64,000 nucleotides of DNA from Halovivax limisalsi. GTDB taxonomy: Archaea > Halobacteriota > Halobacteria > Halobacteriales > Natrialbaceae. Made by a program: the position numbers and the translations under genes. The notes under the pieces are model-generated. The model was not told the DNA's origin. It saw nothing but the letters and a program-made list of their open reading frames with translations, and did not search any database. The stretch spans positions 2,976,001 to 3,040,000 of the forward strand of contig NZ_CP095757.1 of assembly GCF_023093535.1 (NCBI RefSeq), written 5' to 3'. Shown piece after piece: positions 5,748 to 63,801 of the stretch. Each line of letters begins with the position of its first letter. Position 1 is the first letter of the stretch.

Positions 5748-5869
5748 GTCGGGGTCTACGGGTCCCAGCGGGCAAGTAGGTACGGTCACGGGCAAGCGAA
5801 CAAAGGTGGTCGGGAAATCGACTACGGGTAGTCCCGAGCGGCGGGGCGACCGAGCCCGGTTCGCCGAAC

Positions 5870-6940
5870 TCACGCCCACCGGAACCCGGTCGCGTCACTC
5901 GGCGGCGAGAGCGGGGACGCCGGCAGCTCGTCGGGCACCGTGGGACGGTTGTAGGCCCGCGGCGCGACGTCGTTCGGACCGTCGGGGTAGTACAGGGAGG
6001 CGAGCAGCTGGAGTTGGCCGCGACCCACGCCGAGTTCGAACTGCCCGCCGCCGTACAGCCGGATGTCGTTCTCGCGGCCGTACGCGAGCGTCTCGAAGAG
6101 CGATCCGAGCGAGCCGAACCGGGAGGGCTTGACGTTCAGCCGCGCGGGTTCGAACGGCAGGTCGCGAACGTCGTCGAGGCCGTGGATCGGCGCGTCCCAC
6201 GAGACCCGCTCGCGGACGGCCGGGTCCTCGAACAGGGGTCGCGTCTCCTCGGTGAGGGCCGGATCCTCGATCACGGCGTCCGGGAACGCCTCGAAGAGCC
6301 GTTCGTACAGCTCCGGATCGCCCGGATTGTCGACGTCGGTCCCCTCGTAGTGGCCCTTGAGGTCGAGGATCCGGACGGCGTCGGTCTCGACCAGCGCGTC
6401 GATCACGTCGTCGGTCCACTCGTCCGTGGGATCGAGTTTGAACTCGACGTCGGGAACGCGTTCGAGGAGCTCGTCGACCCGGTCGGTCGTCGGCGGGTCG
6501 CCGAGCCGGGTGCTGGCGACGAAGTGCATCGGCGCCGGGTCGCGATCGACCGCGCTCGCCAGGTCGGTCCCCGCCTGGCGGAGGGCGAGGTCGAGCGCCG
6601 CGCTCTCGACGCCCCACCGCCGGTAGTTGCGAAACGCGTCCCGGGTCGGTGCGCCGGCCGGGAACAGATCGAGATCGCTCACGTGAGCGGAGAACGAGTG
6701 GATCGAGTCGTACTCGCCGGCGAGGTCGGGCAGGCCCGTCCGCGCGAGCGCATCGTGTTCGTCGGCGTCGTAGGTGACGTCCTCGCCCCGCCCGGTCACG
6801 GGCTCGCCGCTCGGGCCTGAGCCCGACAGCGAGACGATCGTCGTCACCCGGGTGAAGTCGCTCGACGTCTCGCGTTCGCGCCGGGAGAGCGAGACGTCCT
6901 CGATCGCGAGCGGCAGGTCGGCCAGCCGATCGTAGTCCAT
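5870..6940 (-). CDS. Enolase-superfamily protein (mandelate racemase/muconate lactonizing enzyme-like)
   Basis: A 356-residue protein with the C-terminal barrel order of the enolase superfamily. EFKLDPTDEW and ILDLKGHYEGTDV hold candidate catalytic lysine and metal-ligand positions, VIEDPALTEE is the usual I-E-D/E-P strand, and LNVKPSRFGSLGSL matches the second-lysine strand of the o-succinylbenzoate-synthase and dipeptide-epimerase groups. The N-terminal capping domain is divergent. These enzymes abstract the alpha-proton of a carboxylate under Mg2+; the actual substrate is unknown. The aminotransferase gene follows on the same strand, so the two may act on one amino or keto acid, which is inference only. 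Confidence 0.75.
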   Translation of the reverse strand: MDYDRLADLPLAIEDVSLSRRERETSSDFTRVTTIVSLSGSGPSGEPVTGRGEDVTYDADEHDALARTGLPDLAGEYDSIHSFSAHVSDLDLFPAGAPTRDAFRNYRRWGVESAALDLALRQAGTDLASAVDRDPAPMHFVASTRLGDPPTTDRVDELLERVPDVEFKLDPTDEWTDDVIDALVETDAVRILDLKGHYEGTDVDNPGDPELYERLFEAFPDAVIEDPALTEETRPLFEDPAVRERVSWDAPIHGLDDVRDLPFEPARLNVKPSRFGSLGSLFETLAYGRENDIRLYGGGQFELGVGRGQLQLLASLYYPDGPNDVAPRAYNRPTVPDELPASPLSPPSDATGFRWA

Positions 6941-49534: not shown

Positions 49535-51580
49535 ATGCCGACGTGTCCGTACTGCCTCCGCGGCGCCGTCGTCGACGGCGCGTGCGCGGCGTGCGATCGG
49601 TCGATTCGCACGCGAAACGGGATGCCCAGCGTTACGGCTGCGTGCGAGAGGGATCGACGAGTCGACGAACTTCGTCACCTCGCGGCGCTCGACGTCTCCG
49701 GGTCGCTCGATCCGGTCGCCGAGGCCCATCGGGCCGGTCGGCTCTCGACCGCCGTCGTCGATCGGTTCTTCGATCGGCGGCCGATCGGCTGGCGCGTGCT
49801 ACTCGAAGCGGCCCTCGGCGGGCGGTGTCTCGTCGTCGGCGCCGAAACCGAGGCCGCGGCGCTCGCGCTCGCGGAGGTGACCGAGTCGCTCTGGATCGCC
49901 GACGTGAACCCGGCGTCGCTCGAAGCGCTCGACGCCGTCGCGACCGCCACGGGAACGGCGCTGTGCCCGCTCCACGCCACGGTCGCCGAACTGCCGTTTC
50001 CGCCCGAGGCGTTCGACCTCGTCGTGGTCCAGTGTGCACCGAAATCGCTCGACGGCGTCCTCCCCCACCTCCGACCGCTCCTCGCGTCGGACGGGCGACT
50101 CGCGCTCGTGGTCGACGGCTGGCCGCGGGAACTGGGGCTGACGGCCCCGCTCGGTCTCGACGCTGCCAGTAACGGCGCGGGGGTTCGGTCGCGGATCGAG
50201 TCGACGATCGCGAGCCGCCCCGGTCGAGTCGGTCGGCGCCTCGAAGCAAACGGACTCGTCCGCGAGCGGTCGTACGCGCTCCTCTCGCGGGGGACCCACG
50301 AGAACGAACTCTCGGTCCCCCTCGGGAGCGCCGACGCGCGGCGGTGGCTCCTCCGGTCGTTCGACGGGACGGCCGGGCTACCCGGCGTCGGCGCGCTGGA
50401 TCGGCTCGCTGCGCTCTTCGATCGGACGGAACTCGTCGAGCGGTCCTGCCCGCGATACCTCCACGTCTGCGAACCGGTCCCGCCGGGCCGGTCGGCGGGC
50501 GCGGTCGAGTCGGCTTCCCCCGACGGAAACCGTGACGAGGCCCTCGTCGCGCTCGCCGGAAAGCACCGGACGACCGTTTTCGAACTCGCCGACGGCCGCC
50601 TCGATCGACTCAGGAAGGTCCCGAACGGTCGACGGCAGGCGGTGACGAACCGGCGAGCGCGGGACGCGACCGAGACCGCCGCGACCGTCGAATCGATCGA
50701 GCCGACGATCCCGGACGCGGTCGCCCGCGGCGGTCCGTTCGGTCCCGAACGCGTCGAACGGCCGGTGCGCGGTCGTCCGCTCGATCGGATCCTCGGGTCG
50801 GGACCCACCGCGACCGAACGGGCGATCGACGCCGCCTACGACTGGCTCGAACGCCTCCAACGGGGGACCCGCTCCCGACCGGAGCGAGTGACCCCGGCCG
50901 ACGCCGCGGCCGAGCTGACCGCGGATCGCTTCGGCCTCACCGATCCGCCGCGACTCGCGGGCGCGATCGAACCGCCGCGCGTCCTCGCCCACGGCGATTT
51001 CTTCGGCTCCAACATCTACGTCGCGACGGGCTCGAACGTCCCCGTCCAGGGCCTGGCCGACAGTCCCGGTCGGGAACGCTTCGGCGCGCGTGCCGAGCGG
51101 TCGTTCCAGCGGGTCGAACGGGGCCCGCGAACTGGCGCCGAGCGGTCGTTCCAGCGGGTCGAACGGCGCCGATCGAGTGAACGCACAGGACCGTCGACGC
51201 CCGGCTACGCGGTCTCGGGCGTCATCGACTGGGAGTGGGCGCGTCGGGACGCGAACCCGATCGTCGACGGCGGATTCTTCGCGCTCGAATCAGCCGCGCA
51301 CCTGGCCGGCGACTTCGAGGCCGGACTCGACCTGCTCGTCAGCGGGGAGAGCCGGCCCGCGCGCGCACTCGTCGATCGGCTGGGGGACTACGGCGACGCG
51401 ATCGGCGTCGAGTCGCACGCGCTCGCGGCGTTCCTGCCGATCGGCTACGTCGAACGAGCGCGACGCGACGCGGCGCTGGCCGGACGGCTCGACGTCGACT
51501 GGCCGGGACGGACGCGCCGCGTCTGGGACCGCCACGAAGCCCTGGCGCGACGGCTCAGTCGAACCCGTCGCCCTCGGTGA
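49535..51580 (+). CDS. Zinc ribbon + SAM-methyltransferase-like domain + aminoglycoside phosphotransferase-like kinase fusion
   Basis: A 681-residue multidomain protein. Cys4, Cys7, Cys17 and Cys20 form an N-terminal zinc ribbon. Residues about 95-250 look like a Rossmann methyltransferase (CLVVGAETEAAALALAEVTE, ELPFPPEAFDLVVVQCAPKS), although the usual GxGxG loop is degenerate (VVGAETEAAA). The C-terminal about 300 residues are an APH/choline-kinase-type domain: VLAHGDFFGSNIYV near 483 is the catalytic loop and GVIDWEWARRDANPIVDG near 561 the Mg-binding loop. An in-frame repeat interrupts the kinase between these motifs. It may phosphorylate a sugar or lipid acceptor. Its end overlaps the convergent GT4 gene by 26 bp. 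Confidence 0.8.
   Translation: MPTCPYCLRGAVVDGACAACDRSIRTRNGMPSVTAACERDRRVDELRHLAALDVSGSLDPVAEAHRAGRLSTAVVDRFFDRRPIGWRVLLEAALGGRCLVVGAETEAAALALAEVTESLWIADVNPASLEALDAVATATGTALCPLHATVAELPFPPEAFDLVVVQCAPKSLDGVLPHLRPLLASDGRLALVVDGWPRELGLTAPLGLDAASNGAGVRSRIESTIASRPGRVGRRLEANGLVRERSYALLSRGTHENELSVPLGSADARRWLLRSFDGTAGLPGVGALDRLAALFDRTELVERSCPRYLHVCEPVPPGRSAGAVESASPDGNRDEALVALAGKHRTTVFELADGRLDRLRKVPNGRRQAVTNRRARDATETAATVESIEPTIPDAVARGGPFGPERVERPVRGRPLDRILGSGPTATERAIDAAYDWLERLQRGTRSRPERVTPADAAAELTADRFGLTDPPRLAGAIEPPRVLAHGDFFGSNIYVATGSNVPVQGLADSPGRERFGARAERSFQRVERGPRTGAERSFQRVERRRSSERTGPSTPGYAVSGVIDWEWARRDANPIVDGGFFALESAAHLAGDFEAGLDLLVSGESRPARALVDRLGDYGDAIGVESHALAAFLPIGYVERARRDAALAGRLDVDWPGRTRRVWDRHEALARRLSRTRRPR
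51092..51166. repeat. In-frame 45-bp-spaced direct repeat inside the kinase domain
   Basis: A 30-bp unit beginning GCCGAGCGGTCGTTCCAGCG occurs at 51092-51121 and 51137-51166. The encoded repeat is AERSFQRVER. It lies between the catalytic loop and the Mg-binding loop of the kinase, where the family has a short turn. Confidence 0.88.
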
Positions 51581-52808
51581 GCGATTCGAGGATCCGCGTC
51601 GTCCGGGCGACCGTCAGCTCCCAGGATCCCGGTCGGTCAGTCTCGGGCGGCGACCCGTCGGTGGTCGCGTCGACACCGGATCCGTCGCCGGCCAGCGCGG
51701 AGGTGGCAGGGGTGGCGGAATCGATCGAGCGCCGCCCGCCGACGCCCGTCGTCTCCGCCAGCGCCGCGTCGAGCGCCTCCGCGAACGCGGCCGGAGCGGC
51801 CTCGCCGACGAGTCGATCTCGCGACGTCGCGACCGGGCGGAGCTGGGGCAGGTCGGTCGCGACGACCGGCACGCCGGCGGCCTGGGCTTCGAGCACCGTC
51901 CGGGGAACGCCCTCCGCGCGACTGGGGAGGACGAGCGCGTCGGCCGCGCGATAGCAGGCGGGCATCGCCTCGTGCGGCACCTCGCCAAGAAACTGGACCG
52001 CCTCGCCCGCTTCCCGCGCGGTCGCGTCGAGCTCGGACCGCAACGGGCCGTCGCCGCAGACGTAGAGCGTCGCCGCCGGCCGGCGATCCCGCAGGCGATC
52101 GACCGCGTCGACGGCGAGGCCCGGTCGCTTGCCCTCGACGAGACGGCCGACGAAGAGCACCGCGTCGCCTTCGCCGGCGATCCGCTCGGTCACGGGGCCA
52201 CCGGGCGAGAAGCGTTCGCGGTCGATGCCGTTGGGAACGACGGCGATCGGCGTGCGAACCCCGTAGGATCGCAGGCGGCTCCGGTCGACGTCGGTGTAAC
52301 AGAACACGACGTCAGCGGCGTCCAGCGTCGCGCGGCCGAGGGTTCGCAGATAGGCCTCGATGTACCGCCGGGGCGCGTTCTGCGAGAACACGCCGTGGTT
52401 CGTGATCGCGAGCGGCGTCGATCCGAGCGTTCGCCTGAGAGCGGCGAGGTTCGTCGAGAAGTACAGGTGCGAGTGGGCGTGGATCACGTCGTACCCGTCG
52501 GCCCCCGCGAAGTGGCGCGCGAGACCGACGGAGACGTCGTTGCCGAGCGGGGAGACGGTGGGGTCGTACCGGCGGAGCGTGTACCCGCTCGCGGACGACG
52601 GGCCGTCGTCGTTCGCGGTACCGTTACCGGCAACGCGCCCCTCGCCAGTCACGCGTTCGACAGACGGCGCCGACGGATCGTGTCGGATGGTCAGGACCGT
52701 CACGTCGTGGCCCATCGCCGCCTGATCGCGACTCATCGCGTGGACGTGGTAGGCCGCGCCGCCGGTCACGTCCGGGTGAACGGTGTGTGCGATTCGGAGG
52801 ATCTTCAT
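51555..52808 (-). CDS. Family 4 glycosyltransferase (GT-B fold)
   Basis: A 417-residue GT-B enzyme. MKILRIAHTVHPDVTGGAAY is the usual N-terminus of GT4 proteins that bind a lipid-linked acceptor. The donor domain shows VLFVGRLVEGKRPGLAVDAV, LYVCGDGPLRSELDATAREA and the E-x7-E motif in RAEGVPRTVLEAQAAGVPVV. An Asp/Thr/Ser-rich insertion near residue 370 precedes the last helix. The start overlaps the sugar-phosphate transferase stop by 4 bp (ATGA), so the two genes form an operon. Confidence 0.9.
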   Translation of the reverse strand: MKILRIAHTVHPDVTGGAAYHVHAMSRDQAAMGHDVTVLTIRHDPSAPSVERVTGEGRVAGNGTANDDGPSSASGYTLRRYDPTVSPLGNDVSVGLARHFAGADGYDVIHAHSHLYFSTNLAALRRTLGSTPLAITNHGVFSQNAPRRYIEAYLRTLGRATLDAADVVFCYTDVDRSRLRSYGVRTPIAVVPNGIDRERFSPGGPVTERIAGEGDAVLFVGRLVEGKRPGLAVDAVDRLRDRRPAATLYVCGDGPLRSELDATAREAGEAVQFLGEVPHEAMPACYRAADALVLPSRAEGVPRTVLEAQAAGVPVVATDLPQLRPVATSRDRLVGEAAPAAFAEALDAALAETTGVGGRRSIDSATPATSALAGDGSGVDATTDGSPPETDRPGSWELTVARTTRILESLTEGDGFD

Positions 52809-54301
52809 GGTGAGTTCCCGCGGAGCCACCGGCGAAGGCGCCGGCGGAGGAGGTCGGTCACGTCCGCCCCGACGAAGCGAAGCTGGGCGGCGACGATCCG
52901 GCAGTCGAGGGCGAACGACTGGCTCTCGATGTATTGCCGGTCGAGTTCGAGTTTTCGAGGGCCGGTCGTGCTGCCGACGTCGTTGACCTGGGCGAGTCCC
53001 GTGAGGCCCGGCTTGACGTGCCAGCGAACCCGCCAGCCGGGCACGGCCGCCTCGATGAGGCGCTCCTCGTCGATCCAGTTCGCCCGCGGCCCGACGACGC
53101 TCATGTCGCCCCGAAGGACCGACCAGAGCTGCGGAATCTCGTCGAGGTGCGTGCGCCGTAGGACCCGGCCGACCGGCGTGATCCCCTCGGTCTCGCGGTC
53201 GGCCTGGGGCACCGGGTTCTCGCTCTCGGGGCGCATCGTCCTGAACTTTCGGACGCGAATCCGACCGCCGAACGCCGCGGTCCGGGTCTGCTGATAGAGG
53301 ATCGATCCGTTCGACTCGCGCGCGAGCGTCGCCGCGAGGGCGAGCGCCACCGGTGCCAGCACCAGGAGGCCGACGGTCGCGAACGCGACGTCGAACGCCC
53401 GCTTCGAGACGTGGGTGTACCACGGCCAGGGATCGACGGTCACCTCGACCAGCGAGCCGCCGGCGTCCCCGGCGATCAGCACGTCGTCCGCGAGGGACTC
53501 GTGACTCACGACGGCGAGGCCGTGGTCGAACGCGACCGCCAGCGAGCCGAAACACTCGCCGCGGTCCGGTTCGGGGAACGCCAGCGCGAGCGTGTCCACG
53601 TCGTGGCGACGCACCAGCGACTCCAGCCTGGAGAGGCCGCCGAGTCGCTCGGCGGGATTCGGATTCGCGACCACGCCGACACCGGCCCGACCGCCGTCGG
53701 TCGCCGTCGGCACCTCGGCGACGCGCTCGCGTCGCGCTGGCGATCCGCCCGGCGCGTCGCGTTCCGTCGCGCCCGTGCGTCCGGCGTCCACTCCGGTCGG
53801 GGGTGACACGAATCCGATCGGGTTCACGGCCAGGTCGTCGGTGACGGCCTCGATCACGGCCCGATCGTCACCGACGACGAGGACTCGATTTGGGCGCTCG
53901 CGTCGGCGAAGCAACCAGTAGTACGGCGGAAGCGACACGGCCAGAATCCCCCAGACGGGGACGAGCGCCCCCGCTGGAAGCGAAAGCGGTCCGTACCCCG
54001 ACCCGAGGGGCCAGAGCAGGAGGCACGCGAGCGTGAGTCGCCCGAGCGTCGTCGCGAGCAGCGACGTCACTCTGCGCGGTCGCGGACGATACATCGGTTC
54101 GAGCGCCAATCCGATCACGAGGGCAGCCCCACTCGTCGCGACGACGATCGCGGCCGCGTCGGGCGCATCGAGCGCGGTCGGGTCGATAGGCGGGCCGTAC
54201 CCCGGAGTTCGCCGCGCGTAAAGGCTCCAGACGGTCGCTACCGCGGCCAGCCCGGTCGTCCCGATCGCACTCGCCGCCCGATACCACCAGCCCGAGTGCA
54301 T
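52805..54301 (-). CDS. Polyprenyl-phosphate sugar-phosphate transferase (WbaP/bacterial sugar transferase type)
   Basis: A 498-residue membrane protein. Four to five N-terminal helices (about 10-135) are followed by a Rossmann-like middle domain (RVLVVGDDRAVIEAVTDDLA). The C-terminal catalytic domain has VSKRAFDVAFATVGLLVLAP, ILYQQTRTAAFGGRIRVRKF, FRTMRPESENP, RRTHLDEIPQLWSVLRGDM and VGPRANWIDEERLI. Members transfer a sugar phosphate from UDP-sugar to a polyprenyl phosphate, starting lipid-linked glycan synthesis on the cytoplasmic face. The ATG at 54301 is used. It is the likely initiating enzyme of this cluster. Confidence 0.92.
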   Translation of the reverse strand: MHSGWWYRAASAIGTTGLAAVATVWSLYARRTPGYGPPIDPTALDAPDAAAIVVATSGAALVIGLALEPMYRPRPRRVTSLLATTLGRLTLACLLLWPLGSGYGPLSLPAGALVPVWGILAVSLPPYYWLLRRRERPNRVLVVGDDRAVIEAVTDDLAVNPIGFVSPPTGVDAGRTGATERDAPGGSPARRERVAEVPTATDGGRAGVGVVANPNPAERLGGLSRLESLVRRHDVDTLALAFPEPDRGECFGSLAVAFDHGLAVVSHESLADDVLIAGDAGGSLVEVTVDPWPWYTHVSKRAFDVAFATVGLLVLAPVALALAATLARESNGSILYQQTRTAAFGGRIRVRKFRTMRPESENPVPQADRETEGITPVGRVLRRTHLDEIPQLWSVLRGDMSVVGPRANWIDEERLIEAAVPGWRVRWHVKPGLTGLAQVNDVGSTTGPRKLELDRQYIESQSFALDCRIVAAQLRFVGADVTDLLRRRLRRWLRGNSP

Positions 54302-54579
54302 CCGTCGTGGGGTCGCCCTCGCCGCTCTTAATGCCGGAGCCTCGTTCCGGCGACAACGCCACCCTACGCGGGAGTTACTGTTCGAATCCGGTCCAGGCGA
54401 TGCCGGGCGGTTGCGGGCGCCTCGGTGACGACGAGCGGGAAGGCCGAGCTTACAGCCGCGATTCGAGCCGCGATGAGCCGGGGAACGGCCCGTAGGCCGG
54501 CCCAAACGGCGTTGGCCTGGCCAACGTTTATTCCTCCGCTCGAAGCAGGCACTCGCAATTCGGGTCGACCGACACTCTC

Positions 54580-56487
54580 ATGTCTGATACGAAGGATCTC
54601 GACGTCGAACTCAGCTGGCGCGAGAAGGGGCGAGCGCTCTACCGGGTCGCGCTGTTTCAACCCTGGTTCGCCGCCGGGGTGATCGCTCTCTCGCTCGTCG
54701 CCGCGCTGCTCGAGGGAATCGGACTCACGTTCATCCAGCCCATCATCGAGGTCGCCCAGGGCTCGGCCGACGCCGCCGAGTCGTCGGCGCTCGTGGGGCT
54801 GTTCCTCGCGGCGTACGACCGGCTCGGGCTCCCCTTCACGCTCGGCTCGCTCGTCGCCGGGGTGGCCGTCGTGATGACGATCCGCTACACGACGTCGTTC
54901 CTGGTCGGCTGGTTCCGGGCCGCGATCGAGACGCGCTACGTCAGGCACCTCCAGGAGGAGGCGTTCACAACGGCGCTGGACGCCGAGGTGGCGTACTTCG
55001 ACCAGGAGGGCTCCGACGACATCCTGAACGCGATCGTCACGCAGGCGGAGTACGCCGGCCGCGTCATCCGCTACGCGATCAACACCATCGAACAGGGCCT
55101 GCTCGCCCTGATGTACTTCGCCGTCGCGGTGGTCATCGCGCCCGCACTGGCCGTCGTGACCGCGGCGTTTCTCGGGACCGCGACCGTCCTCTTCCGGAAC
55201 GTCCTCCAGGGCGGCTACTCGCTCGGCGACGAGGTTGCCGACGCGAAGGAGGGGATCCAGTCGAACGCGCAGGCCGGCACGCAGGGCATCAGGGACGTGA
55301 AGGTCTTCGGCATGGTCGAGGAGCTAAAGCGCGGGTTCGTCAGCGCGGCCGACTCCTTCGAGCGCGCCCGCATCGCCCTCCTGCGCAACGACGCCGCGAT
55401 CCAGAACTTCTACCAGCTCACCGTCGCCGTCTCGGTGTTCGGCCTCATCTACGTCGCGCTGACGTTCCTCTCGCTGTCGGTGGGCGAACTCGGCGTCTTC
55501 CTCTTCGCGATGTTCCAGCTCGGCCCGAAGGTGAGCAGCCTGAATCGCTACCTCTACCGGGTCGAGGGCGAGCTCCCGCACCTGGTCCGCACGCAGGCGT
55601 TCGTCGAGGAACTCCAGCGCCACCGCGAACCTACGTCGGGCGCGACGGCGGGGGCTGACGCGGACGCGACGGCGGACCCGGACTCGGGCGCGACGGCGAC
55701 GTCCAACTCGAGCGCGACGGGGACTCCCGACGGCGGCGCGACCGCGACGCCCGTCTCGATCGACGAGTTCGCGTTCGACGACGTCCACTTCAGCTACGAG
55801 ACGAGCGACGAGTCGGTCCTGCAGGGCGTCTCCTTCGCGTTCGAGCGCGGCGACTTCGTCGCGTTCGTCGGGCCCTCGGGCGCCGGCAAGTCCACGATCG
55901 CGTCGCTGTTCGCCCGGCTCTACGAACCCGATTCAGGCCAGATCCGCGCCGACGGGACGCCGATCGACGCGTTCGACGTGAGCGAGTGGCGCGATCGCGT
56001 CTCGATCGTCCGCCAGGACCCGCACGTCTTCAACGAGTCGCTCCGTCGCAATATCACGATCGGCAAGCGAGACGCGAGCCAGGCCGAGATCGAGCGGGTC
56101 GCCCGGATCGCCCGCGTCACCGAGTTCCTCGACGAACTGCCCGAGGGCTACGACACGGTACTCGGCGACCAGGGCGTGAAGCTCTCCGGCGGCCAGCGCC
56201 AGCGCGTCGCGCTCGCCCGCGCCCTCCTCAAGGACGCCGACCTCCTGATCCTCGACGAGGCGACGAGCGATCTCGATACCGGCCTCGAACGCGAGGTCCA
56301 CGAGGGCATCGAAGCGATGGAGCGCGACTACGCCATGCTCGTCATCGCCCACCGCCTCTCGACGGTCACCAACGCCGACCGGATCTACACCATGGAGGAC
56401 GGACGGATCGTCGAGGACGGCCCCCACCGCGAACTCGTCGACGCCGACGGGACGTACTCGACGCTGTACGCGATGCAATCGGCCTGA
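54580..56487 (+). CDS. ABC transporter, fused TMD-NBD half transporter (MsbA/heteropolysaccharide exporter-like)
   Basis: A 635-residue half transporter. Six helices occupy about 25-330 (WFAAGVIALSLVAALLEGIG and following). The nucleotide-binding domain has Walker A FVGPSGAGKSTIASLFARLY, the signature LSGGQRQRVALARALL, Walker B DLLILDEATSDLD and an H-loop VIAHRLST. Between the two parts, residues about 350-390 are an Ala/Asp/Gly/Thr-rich linker with a repeated SGAT-like pattern. MsbA-type proteins flip lipid-linked oligosaccharides or lipids across the membrane. No Wzx-type flippase was recognised in the window, so this may do that job. Confidence 0.92.
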   Translation: MSDTKDLDVELSWREKGRALYRVALFQPWFAAGVIALSLVAALLEGIGLTFIQPIIEVAQGSADAAESSALVGLFLAAYDRLGLPFTLGSLVAGVAVVMTIRYTTSFLVGWFRAAIETRYVRHLQEEAFTTALDAEVAYFDQEGSDDILNAIVTQAEYAGRVIRYAINTIEQGLLALMYFAVAVVIAPALAVVTAAFLGTATVLFRNVLQGGYSLGDEVADAKEGIQSNAQAGTQGIRDVKVFGMVEELKRGFVSAADSFERARIALLRNDAAIQNFYQLTVAVSVFGLIYVALTFLSLSVGELGVFLFAMFQLGPKVSSLNRYLYRVEGELPHLVRTQAFVEELQRHREPTSGATAGADADATADPDSGATATSNSSATGTPDGGATATPVSIDEFAFDDVHFSYETSDESVLQGVSFAFERGDFVAFVGPSGAGKSTIASLFARLYEPDSGQIRADGTPIDAFDVSEWRDRVSIVRQDPHVFNESLRRNITIGKRDASQAEIERVARIARVTEFLDELPEGYDTVLGDQGVKLSGGQRQRVALARALLKDADLLILDEATSDLDTGLEREVHEGIEAMERDYAMLVIAHRLSTVTNADRIYTMEDGRIVEDGPHRELVDADGTYSTLYAMQSA

Positions 56488-56495
56488 TTGGGTTC

Positions 56496-56515
56496 GAGAG
56501 AGAGAGAGAGAGAGA
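56496..56515. repeat. Dinucleotide microsatellite, (GA)10
   Basis: Ten GA units lie just after the ABC transporter stop, in a short convergent intergenic region. Such simple repeats are uncommon in GC-rich archaeal genomes. Confidence 0.95.
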
Positions 56516-56626
56516 ACGGCTCGCGGGGTCGCTGTGAAACCGACCGTACGCGTCGTATCGGGCGGTCCGACCGGGCGGTGAGCGACCGGCTGGTCGGAGG
56601 CAAAGAACGCCGCCCGCGGCAGAAAC

Positions 56627-56645
56627 CACCGCCTCGAAGGCGGTG
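56627..56645. terminator. Perfect 8-bp hairpin between convergent genes
   Basis: CACCGCCT-CGA-AGGCGGTG forms an 8-bp stem with a 3-base loop between the ABC transporter (plus) and amphi-Trp (minus) ends. No T-run follows, so terminator function is uncertain; it may only shield transcript ends. Confidence 0.4.
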
Positions 56646-56689
56646 AGCGGGTCCTCGAAGCGGACGCGAAGTGCCCAATTGGCTTGGTT

Positions 56690-56983
56690 TCACGCGACGT
56701 CCGGCGGTTCGTCGTCGCTGCCGCCGGGCAGCTCCATCTCGATCTCGAGTTCCGGGTCTTCGACGCCGTCGAACTCGATCTCCAACTCGATCGGTTCCCC
56801 GAAGTCGAACGGTAGTTCCCACTCGTCGCCGACGAGCGTAACGGTGTCCTCGTCCCGCAGTTGTTCGCCCAGTTCGATCAGAAACTCACCGGCGTCGCTC
56901 GCGGTGAGACGGTACTCCCGTTCGAAGTTCCGTCCGGGTCGTATCGTCGTCGGGCCGTCGGCAGTGGATTCGTCGGCTCCCAT
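56690..56983 (-). CDS. Amphi-Trp domain protein
   Basis: A 97-residue acidic protein. The domain is seen in FEREYRLTASDAGEFLIELG, GEQLRDEDTVTLVGDEWELP and PIELEIEFDGVEDPELEIEM, with the Trp of the amphi-Trp motif in DEWELPF. The family occurs in archaea and bacteria and has no settled function. It overlaps the stop of the small upstream gene by one base. Confidence 0.87.
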   Translation of the reverse strand: MGADESTADGPTTIRPGRNFEREYRLTASDAGEFLIELGEQLRDEDTVTLVGDEWELPFDFGEPIELEIEFDGVEDPELEIEMELPGGSDDEPPDVA

Positions 56984-57147
56984 TATCGAATAACGTCGAT
57001 CGTAAGCGTGCTCGCGATCCAGCCGTCCGTATTCTCCGTCTCGGTGAAGACGTACCGGTCCGTTAGTTCGTGTGCCGTGATCAGCGGTCTCTCGTCGTCG
57101 GCGTCCGTCTCGGTGCCGGCGGTCTCCGGTTCGGCCTGCGATTCCAT
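56983..57147 (-). CDS. Small acidic protein (DUF7331-like)
   Basis: A 54-residue protein, MESQAEPETAGTETDADDER at the start. The second half, DRYVFTETENTDGWIAST, resembles the small DUF7331 haloarchaeal family I recall, in which a Y-x-x-x-x-x-x-x-x-x-W-I core is kept. The ATG at 57147 is used. It forms a two-gene unit with amphi-Trp, and a perfect palindrome lies just upstream. Confidence 0.55.
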   Translation of the reverse strand: MESQAEPETAGTETDADDERPLITAHELTDRYVFTETENTDGWIASTLTIDVIR

Positions 57148-57160
57148 GGACGTGCGCGAT

Positions 57161-57174
57161 TTAGGCCGGCCTAA
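57161..57174. promoter_or_regulatory. Perfect palindrome TTAGGCCGGCCTAA, candidate metal-regulator operator
   Basis: The 14-bp site TTAGG-CCGG-CCTAA lies 14 bp before the ATG at 57147. Half-sites and spacing resemble operators of DtxR/SirR/MntR-type metal regulators. A related, imperfect site with the same spacing (TTTGG-TGTG-CCTAG) overlaps the promoter of the Dps operon at 59151-59164. Confidence 0.5.
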
Positions 57175-57376
57175 TCCAATAAAGCTTCCTGTTCTCCCGT
57201 CGCGACAACGTACCGACCACCGCGCGTGTCCGCCGAACCGTTTCCGATCGGTCCTCGCCACGACCCGGTACCGCGTGGCGGCGTTGCCGCCACGGCATTC
57301 AGTTGCGGGCAGGCGGCCCGCAACTCGCTCGGTGCAAAACCGTCATGGGGAAAGGCCGACGGGTCGGCCTCCGTCG

Positions 57377-57958
57377 TCACCGCCGGGACACCGTGTTCGC
57401 GTGGCGCACGACGAGCGTCTCGTCGGCGAGGTACCGCTCGAGGACGTGCGCGTCCGCTTCGAGCGTCTTCAGATGGTTGCGCAGGAGCTCGCTCGTCGTC
57501 GGATCGCCGACTCGGTCCGCCAGTTCGATGTGTTCGCGCCGCTGCACCGCGAGCGTCGCGTAGCCATCGAGGTCGCGCTCGAGCGACGAGCGGATATCGT
57601 AGTGGTGGGCCGCCTCGATGTACAGCGGCGCGTGCTGGCGGATGCCCATCGGCCCGCAGGCCGGAACGCCGCCGAGTGCGGTGATTCGGACGGCGATATC
57701 GTCGGTCATCTCCGTGAGTCGGTCGGCGGCGGCCGCGAGGAAGTCGCCGATCGGCCTCGATTCGGCACCCTCGACGAGCCAGAAATGCTTGCGAACCTGA
57801 TTGAAGAGGATGTACAGCCCCGCCATCTCCTCGTTCAGGGCCGCGACCAGTTCCTCGGCGACGTCCCGTTCGATGCCGAGCGCGTTGTCGGCGACCGCGC
57901 CCCACTCCTGACGGACGTGAGCGGAATCGGGACTCCGGAGATGCGGCGTACTCGTCAT
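57377..57958 (-). CDS. Dps-family protein, third of three, ferroxidase residues lost
   Basis: A 193-residue ferritin-like protein. The Dps-type core is seen as LYILFNQVRKHFWLVEGAES and RITALGGVPACGPMGIRQHA. Compared with the first gene, the four ferroxidase positions (His52, His64, Asp79 and Glu83 there) are Phe59, Gly71, Asp86 and Val90 here, so only the Asp remains. It probably cannot oxidise iron by itself, and may form mixed cages with an active subunit or have another role. It overlaps the second gene's stop by 4 bp (ATGA), so they share a message. Confidence 0.87.
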   Translation of the reverse strand: MTSTPHLRSPDSAHVRQEWGAVADNALGIERDVAEELVAALNEEMAGLYILFNQVRKHFWLVEGAESRPIGDFLAAAADRLTEMTDDIAVRITALGGVPACGPMGIRQHAPLYIEAAHHYDIRSSLERDLDGYATLAVQRREHIELADRVGDPTTSELLRNHLKTLEADAHVLERYLADETLVVRHANTVSRR

Positions 57959-58536
57959 CGGTCCGTCAGCACCTCCGCTCGAACGAGCGTCTCGGCTTCG
58001 AGCGCTCGCTCGATGACGTGGGCGTCCGCCTCGAGGCGTTCGAGGTGGTCCCGGAGCAGTTCGGCCGTGCCCGGATCGCCCCGTTCCTCCGCGAGCGCGA
58101 CGTGGTCGCGCATCCCGGCGATCAGGGTCGCGTACCCCTCGAGGTCGCCCTCCAGGGATGCACGGAGGTCGTAGCGGTGCTCGGCCTCGAGCCGTACCTC
58201 GGCCCGTTCCTGAATCGTCGGCGGCGTGTTCGGGGGAATCCCGCCAAGTTCGACGATCCGAATCGCGAGCGCGTCGTTCATCGCCCGCAGGCGCTTGTAG
58301 GCGTCCTCGAGGAAGTCTGCGAGTGCCTCGTGTTCGGCGCCCGCCGCCGTCCAGAAGTGCTTGCGAAGCAGGTAGAACAGGTTGAACGATCCCGCGTGGT
58401 CGACGCTCAGGGCGTCGACGATCACGTCGGCGTCCGCGCGGTCGACCCGGAGCGCGTTCTCCGCGACGGAGCCCCACGCCTGTCGGCGTTCGCCCGTCTC
58501 GGGCTCCCGGACGAGTCGGCCCTGTTTCTGTGCCAT
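57955..58536 (-). CDS. Dps-family protein, second of three, ferroxidase residues lost
   Basis: A 193-residue ferritin-like protein. The core is FNLFYLLRKHFWTAAGAEHE and DALAIRIVELGGIPPNTPPT. By alignment with the first gene the ferroxidase positions are Phe61, Ala73, Asp88 and Ile92, so three of four ligands are missing. The gene lies 12 bp downstream of the first Dps gene and overlaps the third. Length and overall order match Dps proteins of haloarchaea, which usually form 12-subunit cages. Confidence 0.87.
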   Translation of the reverse strand: MAQKQGRLVREPETGERRQAWGSVAENALRVDRADADVIVDALSVDHAGSFNLFYLLRKHFWTAAGAEHEALADFLEDAYKRLRAMNDALAIRIVELGGIPPNTPPTIQERAEVRLEAEHRYDLRASLEGDLEGYATLIAGMRDHVALAEERGDPGTAELLRDHLERLEADAHVIERALEAETLVRAEVLTDR

Positions 58537-58548
58537 GTTGGGACCAGT

Positions 58549-59097
58549 TCAGTGGGTGGCGCTCTCGAGGACCAGGGTGTCGTCTTCGAGGTAGTGCTCG
58601 AAGTGGTGCCCGTCCTCCTCGAGCTCGACGAGGATCTCGCGCAACAGCTCGGCGGTCGCGGGGTCGCCGAGGTTCTCGGCGAGTTCGATCCTGTCGCGCA
58701 TCGACTCGATGATCTCGCCGTAGATCTCGAGGTCGTTCTCGAACATGGTGCGGACGTCGTAGACGTCCTCGCCCTCGAACTCGACGGTCGCGCGCTCTTC
58801 GAGGTTCGACGGGCCCGAGACGGGGACGCCGCCCAGCGCCTGCGCGCGCTCTGCGATCTCGTCGGCACCCGCCTCGACGCGTTCGTAGGCCTCCTCGAGG
58901 AACTCGTGGAGCGGGAGGAACTCGGCGCCCTCGACGACCCAGTGATGCTTCTTGAGCTGGTGGTAGAGGACGTACGAGTTGGCCAGTTCGGAGTTCAGCG
59001 CGTCGACGATCTGCTCGGCCTTGTCCCGGTCGAGCCGGAGCGCGTTTTCGTCGACGGTCCCGGCCCGTTGACGGACGGTCGTCTCTTGGGAGTTCAT
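58549..59097 (-). CDS. dpsA: Dps-type ferritin (DpsA), complete ferroxidase centre
   Basis: A 182-residue DpsA. It stores iron and protects DNA from Fenton chemistry in a 12-subunit cage. The ferroxidase set is complete: His52 (in KKHHWVVEGAE), His64 (in LPLHEFLEEAYE), Asp79 and Glu83 (in ADEIAERAQALGG). These positions match those I recall for the Halobacterium DpsA structure. The ATG at 59097 is used rather than the GTG one codon before. A strong TATA-like element with a DtxR-like box lies upstream, so iron control is likely. It starts a three-gene operon. Confidence 0.95.
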   Translation of the reverse strand: MNSQETTVRQRAGTVDENALRLDRDKAEQIVDALNSELANSYVLYHQLKKHHWVVEGAEFLPLHEFLEEAYERVEAGADEIAERAQALGGVPVSGPSNLEERATVEFEGEDVYDVRTMFENDLEIYGEIIESMRDRIELAENLGDPATAELLREILVELEEDGHHFEHYLEDDTLVLESATH

Positions 59098-59140
59098 CAC
59101 ACGGGTGATAGGCCCTCGACCACCTTATACCTTTCATCTA

Positions 59141-59164
59141 TCCTATATTTTTTGGTGTGCCTAG
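59141..59164 (-). promoter_or_regulatory. Dps operon promoter: TATA-like element with overlapping metal-regulator-like box
   Basis: Minus-strand CCAAAAAATATAGG lies about 45 bp before the dpsA ATG and stands out in GC-rich DNA. On the plus strand TTTGG-TGTG-CCTAG (59151-59164) overlaps it and has the same half-site spacing as the perfect palindrome at 57161. A bound regulator here would block TFB/TBP. Confidence 0.6.
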
Positions 59165-59299
59165 ATCCGCCGGCGATCTCGGGGCGGCGAAGTCTCGGAT
59201 GACCCGCCGAGCGCCGCGGTCGGGCCGTCGCCCGGCCGTGCGGTAGCGTGGGGAGCGACGGTTCGAAACCTCCTTCGGGTTGCGGTGGCCCGAACCGGT

Positions 59300-59734
59300 A
59301 TGGAGAGTGCTCCGCCGACGGCCGACGACGAAGCGCTGCTCGAACGCCTCGTCGAGACGAACGAGCGCACGTTCGACCCCGAGTTCTTCGACGGCGCCCA
59401 CATCGTCACCGCGGGCGTTCGGACGACCGACGGCTCCGTCTACGAGGGCGTGAGTTTACCGGCGAGCGTCGGCCGCGCGTCGATGTGCGGGGAACCCGTC
59501 GCGCTGGGCTCCGCGATCGCCGACGGGCACGGCCACGACGAGATCGAGACCTGCGCCGCCGTCTCGTACCCGATGCCGTCCCACGACGCGACCGAAGCAC
59601 GGATCATTCCGCCGTGCGGGTCCTGCCGGGAGCTGTTGGCGGATTACGACGAGGAGCTGCGCGTCATCGTCCCCGTCGATGGGGAGAACCGGGTCGTCAG
59701 CGCCGTCGACCTGCTCCCGACCCGGACGTGGTGA
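59300..59734 (+). CDS. Cytidine deaminase-like enzyme
   Basis: A 144-residue zinc deaminase. The first zinc motif reads MCGEPVALGSAI where CDA proteins usually have C-A-E; the second is IPPCGSCRELLADYDEEL. The size and order match homotetrameric cytidine or blasticidin-S deaminase-like proteins. The ATG at 59300 is used; the frame is open for five residues upstream. It is divergent from the Dps operon. Confidence 0.88.
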   Translation: MESAPPTADDEALLERLVETNERTFDPEFFDGAHIVTAGVRTTDGSVYEGVSLPASVGRASMCGEPVALGSAIADGHGHDEIETCAAVSYPMPSHDATEARIIPPCGSCRELLADYDEELRVIVPVDGENRVVSAVDLLPTRTW

Positions 59735-59802
59735 GGGCGGCTCGCAACGGACAGGTTCGGCCGATTGAAACCCCGGAACGTCTCGGGCGGCGTCCGACGA
59801 AC

Positions 59803-60786
59803 TCAATCGCTATCGAACGTTTTCTCCGGCGGGATGAACGTCCCGATCGATACCGTATACAGCGAGACGGTCGCCACCCGAAGCAGGGACGCGACCAGCA
59901 CCGCGAGCGGTGAAAGGACGATCGCGGTCGCGACGGCCACCACGAGCGGCATGTACGCCGGATCGATCGCGGTCGGCAGGTTCGGGGTGGCGGTGTAGGT
60001 CGAGGACAGGAAGTACGCCACGAGGACCGCCGGAACGCCGGTATAAATCAGCCGCCGGGAGAGCAGGGCGAGTTCCTGCTGGAGCGTGAGCGTCTTGAAG
60101 AACTGCCGCATCGTCGCGACGGCCTTCAGCAGCTCCAGCGCGTCGTCGAGCGCCTCGGCAGCCTCGTCGGAGAGGTCCTCGCCGTACCTGCTCTCGAGTC
60201 TCCGCGTGGTATCGAGGTGGTCGGCGTAGTCCGTCCCGAGCGTGACGACTAACGCCTCGAACGTGTCGTCGAGGGTCTCGACCGTCGAGAGGTGGTCCGC
60301 GTAGTCGGAGACGGAAGCGGCGTAGGCTCCGAAGTCGTCACTCGCGTCGACGGAGCGGATCCCGGCCTCGCGTTCGAACTCGCCGACGCGACGCTCCAGG
60401 GTGTCGGCGAGGAGGCCGAGAAACGCGACGGGTTCGTTCGGGCTCACGTCCACGTCAGCGATATCCTCGACGGTACGCCGGTAGTCGAGCGTTCCGTCCA
60501 GCTGGTCCGAGAGGTTCCCTGCCGAGCTGAACAGCCGCGAGAGGATGAGCTGGTTGATCGAGAGGGCGACCGTGAGAAGCGTCAGCAGACCGGACAGCAG
60601 GCCGCTCGACAGCGCCGTCGAGAGGTTGCTCCCGGGGCCGACGTAGATAAGGTCCAGCTCGATTAGCAGCGCTGTCAGGGCGGCGGCGAAGACTGAGAGT
60701 GCAGCGGCGACGCCGAGCCGGTGCCCGGTAATAAAGAGCCAGCGAGTCGCCGGGTTGCCGGCGTCTCTCGTCCACGAACCGGTCAT
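59803..60786 (-). CDS. Polytopic membrane protein of unknown function
   Basis: A 327-residue protein. Helices are visible at about 18-40 (LGVAAALSVFAAALTALLIE), 60-82 (GLLSGLLTLLTVALSINQL), 250-270 (LLSRRLIYTGVPAVLVAYFL) and 290-320. Between the second and third pairs lies a long, acidic, helical cytoplasmic or external domain (about 90-235) that could form a coiled coil. I recognise no family. The ATG at 60786 is used; a second ATG four codons upstream (60798) is equally possible. Confidence 0.7.
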   Translation of the reverse strand: MTGSWTRDAGNPATRWLFITGHRLGVAAALSVFAAALTALLIELDLIYVGPGSNLSTALSSGLLSGLLTLLTVALSINQLILSRLFSSAGNLSDQLDGTLDYRRTVEDIADVDVSPNEPVAFLGLLADTLERRVGEFEREAGIRSVDASDDFGAYAASVSDYADHLSTVETLDDTFEALVVTLGTDYADHLDTTRRLESRYGEDLSDEAAEALDDALELLKAVATMRQFFKTLTLQQELALLSRRLIYTGVPAVLVAYFLSSTYTATPNLPTAIDPAYMPLVVAVATAIVLSPLAVLVASLLRVATVSLYTVSIGTFIPPEKTFDSD

Positions 60787-61376
60787 TGACCGCTCCATCG
60801 TACACGTTACGATCCAGCTGTGGTACCAGCCGAAGACGGTTCCAGACCAACCGTGACGTCGGCCCGCGTGCGGACCGCACCTTGCTCCCCGGGGAGTGGT
60901 GGCGGTGACGCGGCCGATGGACCGGCGGGAGTCACCGGGAAAGGCGATTCCGGCGAGAGTAACGACCATCCGCGTATCGTCCGAGACGCCATAGCGTGAA
61001 CACGTGCCGGAACCCGATAAACCCGGGAGGGGTCGACGACGCGAACGAGACGGCCGATCGGCCGATCCGGCCGGGTGGACGAGCGGAGCGCCCGGCGCGA
61101 TGAAGCAGTGGGACTATCTGCGCAATTACTCTTCGCGTGCCGCTCGGACGGCGGCTGAGTGGAGGGGTCAAATCTATTGACTGGCTTGTGAGCGATCACC
61201 ACGCTGTGACCGTACCGCTAACGTCTTCGACAGGCGGATGGTGAGGCCCACAAGGTGTTCACTGCTCGTTTCTTCCGCCTCGTGACCGACTGCTAGCTCG
61301 GGTGTCACCCGTAAGCGCAGGTTACGCGGACTGACGATGGACGCACCCTATCTATCCGGCCGCCGCGAAGACGGAC
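60787..61376. other. 590-bp region without a recognised gene
   Basis: Frames here read as Arg-rich shadows, codon use is not gene-like, and I see no tRNA or repeat. The part near 61090-61200 (AAATCTATTG and similar) is AT-richer and may hold promoters for the downstream glycosyltransferase. It may also be a degraded remnant at the edge of the glycan region. Confidence 0.5.
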
Positions 61377-62705
61377 ATGAAGATCGGGGTACTGCCCAAC
61401 ATCTTCCCGAAGCTCTCGAAGACGTACGTGCTGGACCAGGTCACGGGCATGCTCGACCGGGGCCACGACGTGCGCCTGTACCCCTCGTACCCGTCGGACG
61501 AGTCCGTCCGCCATCCCGAGTTCGACGCGTACGAACTCGATCGGCGGACGACGTACATCGGGCCGCCGCGATCGCTCGGTCCCGCGGCCGCCGGCTCCGC
61601 GCGAAACGCCGTCTCGCTGGCGATCCGGCGACCGACGACGGTGCCCGAACTCGCACGGACGGCCTTGACCGACGGCCCCCGCGCCGCGGGAACGTTCACC
61701 TACCACGCTCGGACGGTGCTTCCCGACGATCTCGACGTGCTGCACGCCCACTTCGGGCCGGTCGGGCGACAAGCCGCCAGACTCGACCGCGTCGGCGCCG
61801 CCGAGGCGTTCGTGACGACGTTTCACGGCTGGGGGATCAGGGAGCGAGCGAACTACGACGACCTCTTCGAGCGGTGTGACGCCGTCCTCGCCACCTCGAG
61901 GCACGTCCGCGAGCGATTGCTCGACGCGGGAGCCGATCCCGACGCGGTCGACGTCCACCACGTCGGGATCGATCCGCGGCTGTACGACGAGACCGCATCG
62001 GAGGTGCCCCCGCCGGATGCTGCGGCCGTCGACGGCGGGACGGGAGCGGTCGACGGTCCGGGAGATTCACTCGACGATGGACGGGGCGAACACGGCCATC
62101 GCGCGGGGGACCACGGCGCCCGCCGCGAACTCGCGATCCTCACCGTCGCGCGCCTCCACGAGATCAAGGGACTCGAATACGCCATCCGGGCCGTCGACGG
62201 CCTCGCCGATCGGCTGCCGGCCGTCAACGTCACGTACCGGGTCGTCGGCGACGGGCCCCGGCGCGAGCACCTCGAGTCGGTGATCGAGACGCTGGATTGC
62301 GGCGATCGCGTCACCCTGTGCGGGGCGAAACCCCACGCGGCGGTCCGCGAGGCGCTTGGCGAGGCGGACGTCTTCTGCCTCCCGAGCCTCCACGAGGGGT
62401 TCGGCCTCGTGCTGCTCGAAGCCCAGGCGAGCGGGCTGGCGATCGTCGCCTCGGACGTCGGCGGGGTGCGAGAGGCCGTCCGCGCGGGCGAGAGCGCGCG
62501 CCTCGTTCCGCCGAAGGCGCCGGGCGCGATCGCCGACGAACTCGAATCGCTCGCCCGATCGCCGACCGAACGCGATCGGCTGGGGCGGGCCGGTCGACGG
62601 TACGTTCGCGAGAACTTCGACGTTCGAACGCTGAACGACGAACTCGAACGGCGCTACGAGCGAGTGCTCGCAGCGGGCGATCCGTCGAGGAGGGTCGACG
62701 CGTGA
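61377..62705 (+). CDS. Family 4 glycosyltransferase (GT-B fold)
   Basis: A 442-residue GT-B enzyme. The N-terminal domain starts MKIGVLPNIFPKLSKTYVLD and has LDVLHAHFGPVGRQAARLDR and FVTTFHGWGIRERANYDDLF. A Gly/Asp/His-rich insert (about 215-245) separates the two domains. The donor domain has LTVARLHEIKGLEYAIRAVD, YRVVGDGPRREHLESVIETL and the E-x7-E motif LHEGFGLVLLEAQASGLAIV. It resembles GT4 proteins of exopolysaccharide clusters. The GT2 gene downstream is 31 bp away, an operon. Confidence 0.92.
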   Translation: MKIGVLPNIFPKLSKTYVLDQVTGMLDRGHDVRLYPSYPSDESVRHPEFDAYELDRRTTYIGPPRSLGPAAAGSARNAVSLAIRRPTTVPELARTALTDGPRAAGTFTYHARTVLPDDLDVLHAHFGPVGRQAARLDRVGAAEAFVTTFHGWGIRERANYDDLFERCDAVLATSRHVRERLLDAGADPDAVDVHHVGIDPRLYDETASEVPPPDAAAVDGGTGAVDGPGDSLDDGRGEHGHRAGDHGARRELAILTVARLHEIKGLEYAIRAVDGLADRLPAVNVTYRVVGDGPRREHLESVIETLDCGDRVTLCGAKPHAAVREALGEADVFCLPSLHEGFGLVLLEAQASGLAIVASDVGGVREAVRAGESARLVPPKAPGAIADELESLARSPTERDRLGRAGRRYVRENFDVRTLNDELERRYERVLAAGDPSRRVDA

Positions 62706-62736
62706 ATCGACTCGGTCGAGTCGGGCCGCGGAGGGC

Positions 62737-63753
62737 GTGACCGTGACCGAGATCTCCGTCATCGTGCCCGTGTACGACGATCCCGACGGGCTCCGGGCGA
62801 CGCTCGAGTCGTTCGAGCGAGTCGAGTACCCGCCGGATCGCTACGAACTCCTCGTCGTGGACAACGGTTCGACGGACCATACGCGCGCGATCGCCCGCGC
62901 CGCCGCTCGCGAATCGGAGCCGGTCGAGCTGGTCGTCGAGGACGAGATTCAGAGTTCTTACGCCGCCAGGAACGCGGGAATCGCGCGGGCACGCGGCGAT
63001 CTCCTGGCGTTCGTCGACGCCGACGTCACCGTTCCGCCGTCGTTCCTCGCGGACGTCGCGGCGCTGTTCGACGAGCGCGACGTGGACTACGTCGCCCCCT
63101 CGGTCGAGGTGGTCGTCGAGGACGGGCGGTCGCCGACCGACGCGGACGGGCGGTCGACGCTCGTCGGGGCCTACGACGCCGCCGTCGGGTTTTCGACGGC
63201 CGTCACGATCCGCGAGCGCGACTACGCGCCGACGTGCTGTCTGATCGTTCGGCGATCCGTCCTCGAGGCCGTCGGCCCGTTCGACGAACGCCTGGTCTCG
63301 AGCGGCGACCGCGAGTTCGGTCGCCGGGTCGCCGACGCGGGGTTCGTCCAGCACCGCGCGACCGAGATCACCGTCTCCCACCCCGCGCGGACGACGGTTC
63401 GCGAGATGGTTTCGAAGGCCGCCCGGCTCGGAACCGGGCAGGCCCAGATCGCTCGACTGTACCCGGAGACCGGGTGGGTCAGACCCTGGCACCACCCGTA
63501 CAACGTCCTCCCGCCGCGGCCGGGTCACCTCCTTGCGAAGGTCGGGTCGGAGACACCGACGGGGCGCGCGCTCGCGTTCTACGTCTTCGCGTACGCGCTC
63601 AAGCTGACGCGCTGGGGGTTTCGCCTGCGGGCCCGGATCACCGGCGAGGCGGAACCGGAACGGCGAGAGCGGTGGCGACCGCGGGTCGAATCTGCGCTGA
63701 CCGGGCGCGAGCGAGACGAGGCGGCGCAGGCAGTCGGCGATCGGCGAGAGTAG
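62737..63753 (+). CDS. Family 2 glycosyltransferase
   Basis: A 338-residue GT-A enzyme. The catalytic domain starts ISVIVPVYDDPDGLRATLES, with VVDNGSTDHTRAIARAAARE, YAARNAGIARARGDLLAFVD and the DxD-type motif FVDADVTVPPSF. A C-terminal amphipathic region (FYVFAYALKLTRWGFRLRAR) may touch the membrane. GTG at 62737 is used; another GTG two codons on is possible. It shares a transcript with the GT4 gene before it. Confidence 0.9.
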   Translation: MTVTEISVIVPVYDDPDGLRATLESFERVEYPPDRYELLVVDNGSTDHTRAIARAAARESEPVELVVEDEIQSSYAARNAGIARARGDLLAFVDADVTVPPSFLADVAALFDERDVDYVAPSVEVVVEDGRSPTDADGRSTLVGAYDAAVGFSTAVTIRERDYAPTCCLIVRRSVLEAVGPFDERLVSSGDREFGRRVADAGFVQHRATEITVSHPARTTVREMVSKAARLGTGQAQIARLYPETGWVRPWHHPYNVLPPRPGHLLAKVGSETPTGRALAFYVFAYALKLTRWGFRLRARITGEAEPERRERWRPRVESALTGRERDEAAQAVGDRRE

Positions 63754-63801
63754 TGAGCGCCGACGGCGATCCGAACGCCCCGCTGTTGGCTCGCACCTCG
63801 A

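What the first reader, a model, noticed from the sequence alone, without database searches (positions are those of the whole stretch)
57377..59097. Three tandem Dps genes, two without a ferroxidase centre
The first subunit has all four iron ligands (His52, His64, Asp79, Glu83). In the other two the aligned positions are Phe-Ala-Asp-Ile and Phe-Gly-Asp-Val. Overlap and close spacing indicate one message, so mixed 12-subunit cages are possible, with inactive subunits shaping pores, DNA binding or iron exit.
Basis: partly seen in the sequence, partly recalled or inferred. Interest (0 to 1): 0.7.

Follow-up and report, generated by a model that had tools for sequence, protein, structure and literature searches.

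The report
Ferroxidase-less Dps pair beside DpsA
A salt-loving archaeon carries, beside a normal iron-storing Dps gene, two sister Dps genes that lost the iron-oxidising site but are kept together in about one in ten of its relatives, which suggests that they are partner subunits of a mixed iron cage rather than dead copies.

Summary
In detail: DpsA (A, 59097-58549), B (58536-57955) and C (57958-57377) lie in tandem on the minus strand, with the stated residues at the four ferroxidase positions. Relatives sharpen and partly change the reading. B and C are two well-supported sister clades, found only in Halobacteria. Searches with each find the same 40 of 391 genomes of the class; neither occurs alone. 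A lies directly upstream in 25 of the 40, so the conserved unit is the B-C pair, not the triplet. All 48 A proteins examined keep all four ligands; B and C keep Asp79 and usually lack the other three (position 52 is mostly Tyr; the window's Phe is a minority state). B and C evolve under purifying selection and their distances correlate (r = 0.96, against 0.67 for A-B). One genome has a natural in-frame B-C fusion; another has a fusion broken by an insertion. A palindrome resembling DtxR-type iron operators precedes most A-B-C operons. Most likely B and C are obligate partner subunits of ferroxidase-less, heteromeric Dps cages, alone or mixed with A. Assembly is not shown. Known fold, new heteromeric variant.

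The parts
58549..59097 (-). dps A: canonical haloarchaeal DpsA with intact ferroxidase ligands H52, H64, D79, E83
   Evidence: NF041388 292 bits against cut-off 170; ligands invariant in 48/48 A relatives
57955..58536 (-). dps B: Dps-fold subunit with F61/A73/D88/I92 at the four ligand positions (A numbering 52/64/79/83)
   Evidence: AlphaFold2 pLDDT 78.7, best fold match 1MOJ; clade support 100/98
57377..57958 (-). dps C: Dps-fold subunit with F59/G71/D86/V90 at the four ligand positions
   Evidence: AlphaFold2 pLDDT 79.6, best fold match 1MOJ; clade support 100/97
57955..57958 (-). 4-nt stop/start overlap (ATGA) joining B and C
   Evidence: -4 nt spacing recurs in about half of the loci, otherwise mostly +1 to +6 nt, with few exceptions
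59150..59165 (-). imperfect palindrome TCTAGGCACACCAAAA resembling a DtxR/SirR-type iron operator, beginning 68 nt before the A start codon
   Evidence: 11 of 14 positions of TTTAGGC-NN-GCCTAAA; best match beats dinucleotide shuffles (p<=0.05) in 23 of 27 A-B-C operons; assignment to a DtxR-type regulator is inference
59123..59130 (-). TATA-like element GTATAAGG upstream of A; likely the single promoter of the operon
   Evidence: inference from position and conservation in relatives

Best explanation
B and C are a paired set of ferroxidase-less Dps subunits derived from a haloarchaeal DpsA. The ferroxidase site was most simply lost in their common ancestor, which then duplicated. The two copies became mutually dependent, so the working species is most likely a B-C heterodimer built into a dodecameric cage, either B/C alone or mixed with the catalytic A subunit made from the same message. 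A (from the operon or elsewhere in the genome) supplies Fe(II) oxidation; B and C keep the fold, Trp53 and the putative pore-gate acid but not oxidation, and have a changed set of acidic residues. Expression is probably iron-dependent. Shown: sequence state, phylogeny, co-occurrence, fusion, selection. Inferred: heteromeric assembly, the role of A, iron control. The confidence is for an obligate B-C heteromer of ferroxidase-less Dps subunits; whether A shares the cage is treated as the first rival.
For: Searches with B and with C find exactly the same 40 of 391 genomes. The genes are adjacent in the same order, with -4 to +6 nt spacing in nearly all. B and C are each monophyletic and together one clade (100/98, 100/97, 100/100) sharing Y52, R73, T128, W12 and L129, so the site was probably lost before B and C split. 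Natural B-C fusion without an ATG at the C start in L068/G379, and the remnant of another in L069/G233. Distances correlate r(B,C)=0.96 against r(A,B)=0.67 in the same operons. dN/dS about 0.13-0.33, so not decaying. B and C differ at 20 conserved columns, 17 of them in positions 39-107 (helix A, helix B and the loop after it), the part that carries the inter-subunit ferroxidase site in Dps. Upstream palindrome in 23/27 A-B-C operons, and an Fe-dependent-repressor-type gene upstream on the opposite strand in L003, L048 and L051.
Against: No expression, mass or structural data. Co-occurrence and matching distances are also expected for any two genes inherited together. B and C could form separate homododecamers. 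No complex could be modelled here. The two fusions may be one event that spread. Only 4 of 14 B-C-only loci show the palindrome within 150 nt of B. A minority of B proteins keep two or three ligands (9/40).
Confidence: 0.62

Rival explanations
1. Three-component cages: A, B and C co-assemble in one 12-mer, like the H and L chains of ferritin. A:B or A:C dimers could build half-sites from A's two histidines and the Asp79 that B and C retain. (This is compatible with the best explanation; it adds A to the cage.)
For: A lies 12-13 nt upstream of B in the window's family and several others. Asp79 is kept in 39/40 B and 40/40 C although the other three ligands are mostly gone. The A beside B-C in the window's family groups with that family's own DpsA, not with other operonic A proteins, yet sits at the same spacing. 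In one search every B-C genome has at least one further Dps match.
Against: In 15 of 40 genomes A is not adjacent. A-B distances correlate much less than B-C distances. Asp79 may be kept for structural reasons. Nearly all haloarchaea have an A anyway, so its presence says little.
Confidence: 0.38
2. B and C form ferroxidase-less cages whose main job is nucleic-acid binding or chromosome protection, as proposed for a ferroxidase-less Dps-like protein of Deinococcus.
For: B and C are far less acidic than A (mean net charge -23 and -14 against -32). They have conserved N-terminal extensions with arginines (GRLVREP; PHLRRP). Deinococcus geothermalis Dgeo_0257 lacks the centre and binds DNA six-fold more tightly than its canonical partner (PMC9820295).
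Against: The upstream element and the neighbouring Fe-dependent-repressor-type genes in some loci point to metal control. The acidic position 150 is conserved in all three. Screening of charges in molar KCl makes tail-driven DNA binding doubtful (general knowledge).
Confidence: 0.2
3. B and C are decaying duplicates without function.
For: Catalytic residues lost; patchy occurrence (40/391); broken copies in G233 (insertion) and G221 (frameshift).
Against: Purifying selection (dN/dS 0.13-0.33), class-wide invariant B- and C-specific residues, and strict co-occurrence in the same 40 genomes.
Confidence: 0.05
4. B and C carry a different metal site (for example with Tyr52, Asp79 and loop residues Cys94, Met97, His102 of C) and a chemistry other than ferroxidation.
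For: Tyr52 common and Asp79 near-universal; C loop GVPvCGPMGIRQH strongly conserved (Cys94 31/40, Met97 39/40, His102 37/40).
Against: No conserved ExxH-type second site. Loop residues may serve the B-C interface. The loop is low-confidence in the models.
Confidence: 0.12

Closest known systems
Halobacterium salinarum DpsA (PDB 1MOJ/1TJO; NCBIfam NF041388)
   Same: Best sequence match of all three proteins and best fold match of the B and C models; A keeps all four ligands
   Different: Known as a single-gene homododecamer with ferroxidase centres; B and C lack three of the four ligands and come as a pair
Heteromultimeric bacterioferritins (Shewanella SoBfr1/2, Magnetospirillum Bfr1/2; PMC12120770)
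   Same: Tandem-duplicated subunit genes in one operon; one subunit specialised for oxidation, the other lacking parts of the ferroxidase centre
   Different: Bacterioferritins with haem-binding subunits; here 12-mer-type Dps, no haem ligand identified, and two different non-catalytic subunits
Animal ferritin H/L heteropolymers
   Same: Catalytic and non-catalytic isostructural subunits co-assemble (PMC7762939)
   Different: 24-mer ferritins of another branch of the superfamily; the L chain supplies acidic nucleation residues (PMC12532284), whereas B and C have lost acids that A conserves
Ferroxidase-less Dps proteins (Deinococcus geothermalis Dgeo_0257, PMC9820295; Lactococcus lactis DpsA/DpsB, from memory)
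   Same: Dps-type protein without a conserved ferroxidase centre
   Different: Not described as an obligate pair in a conserved operon, nor as fused; Dgeo_0257 is only 11.5% identical to its canonical counterpart, B and C are 48% and 45% identical to A

Membership tests
Dps (mini-ferritin) family | Ferritin-like four-helix domain with Dps-type sequence | tested here: met
   PF00210 above cut-off for A, B, C; best fold hits of B and C are Dps structures
Dps (mini-ferritin) family | Inter-subunit ferroxidase ligands His, His, Asp, Glu | tested here: not met
   Met in A (48/48); in B and C only Asp is kept as a rule. B and C are Dps-fold relatives without the catalytic site
Dps (mini-ferritin) family | Dodecameric cage | not testable with these tools
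   No assembly data; only single chains were modelled
Haloarchaeal DpsA equivalog NF041388 | Score above curated cut-off of 170 bits | tested here: inconclusive
   A 292, C 183, B 168 bits; the model does not separate catalytic from non-catalytic forms, and a public record names all three dpsA
Heteropolymeric ferritin (H/L or hetero-Bfr type) | Two or more subunit types in one cage | not testable with these tools
   Indirect support only: co-occurrence, fusion, co-evolution
Bacterioferritin or Dps-like protein with intra-subunit site | Conserved ExxH motifs in the helix bundle | tested here: not met
   No conserved ExxH pair in B or C
Haem-binding bacterioferritin | Met ligand at the two-fold interface | not tested
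   No structure of the B-C interface was available

The most novel reading that the evidence does not exclude
A three-gene, three-role mini-ferritin: haloarchaea build heteromeric Dps cages in which an obligate non-catalytic B-C heterodimer is combined with catalytic DpsA, so that oxidation, entry and release or nucleation are divided among different subunits, a Dps counterpart of H/L ferritin.
Probability: 0.3. Interest if true: 0.75.

Novelty: new variant of a known kind. Interest (0 to 1): 0.55.

Why it matters
Dps cages are treated as homododecamers, and automatic annotation calls all three genes dpsA. If B and C are obligate non-catalytic partners, about a tenth of sampled haloarchaea make mixed mini-ferritins. 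The A, B, B+C and A+B+C combinations would then give a clean natural system to separate oxidation from entry, nucleation and release in a 12-subunit cage.

Tried and rejected
Rfam scan of the window: nothing. Recurrent neighbours other than A: none class-wide; only lineage-local genes, plus P-type-ATPase-like or DtxR-type genes in some loci, so no fixed partner outside the operon. B or C outside Halobacteria: a phylum-wide search with C at E<=1e-20 listed matches only in the window's own order. Plasmid records: one further A-B-C set on a Halarchaeum megaplasmid. Intra-subunit diiron site: not found. Tandem origin of B/C from the operonic A: suggested by the rooted tree (85/74), but a monophyletic A is not rejected (AU p = 0.19), so left open. 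No paper on these genes was found in the held library; Zeth 2004 and Leyn 2015 are not held.

Full report
Observation. Three Dps genes lie on the minus strand: A 59097-58549, B 58536-57955, C 57958-57377. The gap A-B is 12 nt and B-C overlap by 4 nt. All match Pfam Ferritin and, best among solved structures, Halobacterium salinarum DpsA 1MOJ (E 1.7e-66, 2.3e-31, 4.8e-37). B and C are 48% and 45% identical to A. AlphaFold2 models of B and C made from a 14-row alignment (mean pLDDT 78.7 and 79.6) have 1MOJ as first Foldseek hit; their N-terminal extensions and the loop after helix B are low-confidence. The four ligand positions read H52/H64/D79/E83 in A, F/A/D/I in B and F/G/D/V in C, exactly as reported. 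The genome has a fourth, solitary DpsA.

Distribution. A search of 391 genomes of the class with B found B-like genes in 40. A separate search with C at E <= 1e-53 found C-like genes in exactly the same 40. So neither was seen alone. A lies directly upstream in 25 of these 40; in 15 it does not, though each of those genomes has at least one further Dps match. A phylum-wide search with C at E <= 1e-20 gave matches only within the window's order. Only one of the five genomes of the window's own genus has the pair. So the unit is old, patchy and, as far as searched, confined to haloarchaea, and the B-C pair, not the triplet, is its core.

What is conserved. All 48 A sequences examined keep the four ligands. 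B: position 52 is Tyr 35, Phe 3, His 2; position 64 Ala/Thr/Gly/Ser; position 79 Asp 39/40; position 83 mostly Val or Ile, Glu in 8. C: Tyr 30 at 52; Gly, Ala, Ser, Glu and others at 64; Asp 40/40 at 79; mostly Ile, Val or Leu at 83. Counting identity to H/H/D/E, 30 of 40 B and 38 of 40 C keep exactly one ligand; one B keeps three. Of acids conserved in A, both B and C lost positions 75, 83, 106, 128 and 131; B has Arg at 75 in 40/40. The acid at 150 is kept in all three groups (94, 93, 95%); by alignment offset this corresponds to the Listeria Dps pore-gate Asp130 (PMC8389677; the offset is inferred from the match ends, not checked residue by residue). E154, the H. salinarum mineral-nucleation residue (PMC12532284), is acidic in 94% of A, 80% of B and 38% of C. 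Mean net charge is -32 (A), -23 (B), -14 (C); B and C have conserved N-terminal extensions that A lacks.

Evolution. B and C are each a clade (100/98 and 100/97) and together one clade (100/100) in a tree rooted with cyanobacterial Dps (larger tree). They share Tyr52, Arg73, Thr128 and other residues absent from A, so ferroxidase loss most simply precedes their split. Whether they came from the operonic A by tandem duplication is suggested but not settled (support 85/74; AU p = 0.19 for a monophyletic A). In the window's family the operonic A groups with that family's own solitary DpsA, at the same 12-13 nt spacing as in other families; this could be replacement or gene conversion. dN/dS medians are 0.09-0.16 for A and 0.13-0.33 for B and C: constrained, not decaying. 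B and C pairwise distances correlate at 0.96 across 26 operons, A-B at 0.67. Shared inheritance explains part of this, but A shares the operon too.

Fusion. In L068 (G379) B and C lie in one open frame joined by a linker of roughly 45 residues, with no ATG at the usual C start. L069 (G233) has the remnant of such a fusion, broken by an insertion of about 0.5 kb with hairpin ends. G221 (L076) has a frameshifted B. A natural fusion is independent evidence that the two products work in one complex.

Regulation. An imperfect palindrome TTTAGGC-NN-GCCTAAA begins 65-88 nt before A in the operons that have it; the best match is better than dinucleotide shuffles (p <= 0.05) in 23 of 27 A-B-C operons, 10 of 21 solitary A genes and 4 of 14 B-C-only loci. 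The consensus was written down after looking at the sequences, so these p values are optimistic. Its likeness to DtxR/SirR/Idr operators is from memory; haloarchaeal DtxR-family regulators Idr1 and Idr2 act in iron homeostasis (PMC11349517). A gene with both Fe-dependent-repressor Pfam domains was checked in L051, and its homologues sit beside L003 and L048.

Mechanism. I commit to B and C as obligate partners of a ferroxidase-less Dps heteromer, with A as the probable source of oxidation. Steps shown: sequence state, pairing, fusion, constraint, phylogeny. Steps inferred: heterodimer across the two-fold axis, cage formation, mixing with A, iron control. In a mixed A:B or A:C dimer, one site could combine A's two histidines with the Asp79 that B and C keep; this is only a hypothesis.

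Comparison. In working principle it resembles H/L ferritin and hetero-bacterioferritin, where catalytic and less catalytic isostructural subunits share a cage (PMC7762939, PMC12120770). By descent B and C belong with haloarchaeal Dps. A ferroxidase-less Dps-like protein is known in Deinococcus (PMC9820295). I found no report of this gene set in the held library; that library lacks most subscription papers. The public record of one relative names all three genes dpsA, hiding the difference.

Noticed in passing
L069 (G233) about 5640-6140: B-C fusion interrupted by an insertion of about 0.5 kb bounded by AAGCCCACGA...TCGTGGG hairpins, like an IS200/IS605-type miniature element.
   Followed up: partly
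L076 (G221) 4654-5228: B gene is frameshifted while A and C next to it are open; sequencing error or early decay.
   Followed up: no
L099 (Halarchaeum sp. CBA1220 plasmid pCBA1220-01) 5442-7124: The A-B-C set lies on a 603-kb megaplasmid; all three genes are annotated dpsA.
   Followed up: partly
L054, L058, L059 about +2400 from B; L053 about +1800: Long ORF that looks like a heavy-metal P-type ATPase downstream of B-C in several genomes; possible metal context. Not checked against a domain library.
   Followed up: no
L002 5582-5944: In Saliphagus infecundisoli B and C are 361 nt apart by my start choice, unlike all other intact loci; cause not examined.
   Followed up: no
window 59300-59734 +: Divergent ORF with cytidine-deaminase-like motifs (CGEPVALGSA...PPCGSCRELL), by eye; the Pfam scan used a wrong reading frame and gave nothing.
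   Followed up: no
window 57377-59137 -: The C frame stays open upstream through B and A for 586 aa, a shadow of high G+C rather than a long protein.
   Followed up: yes
window 51500-63800: The operon sits beside ORFs resembling glycosyltransferases, a sugar transferase and an ABC exporter (by eye), a likely surface-glycan locus.
   Followed up: no
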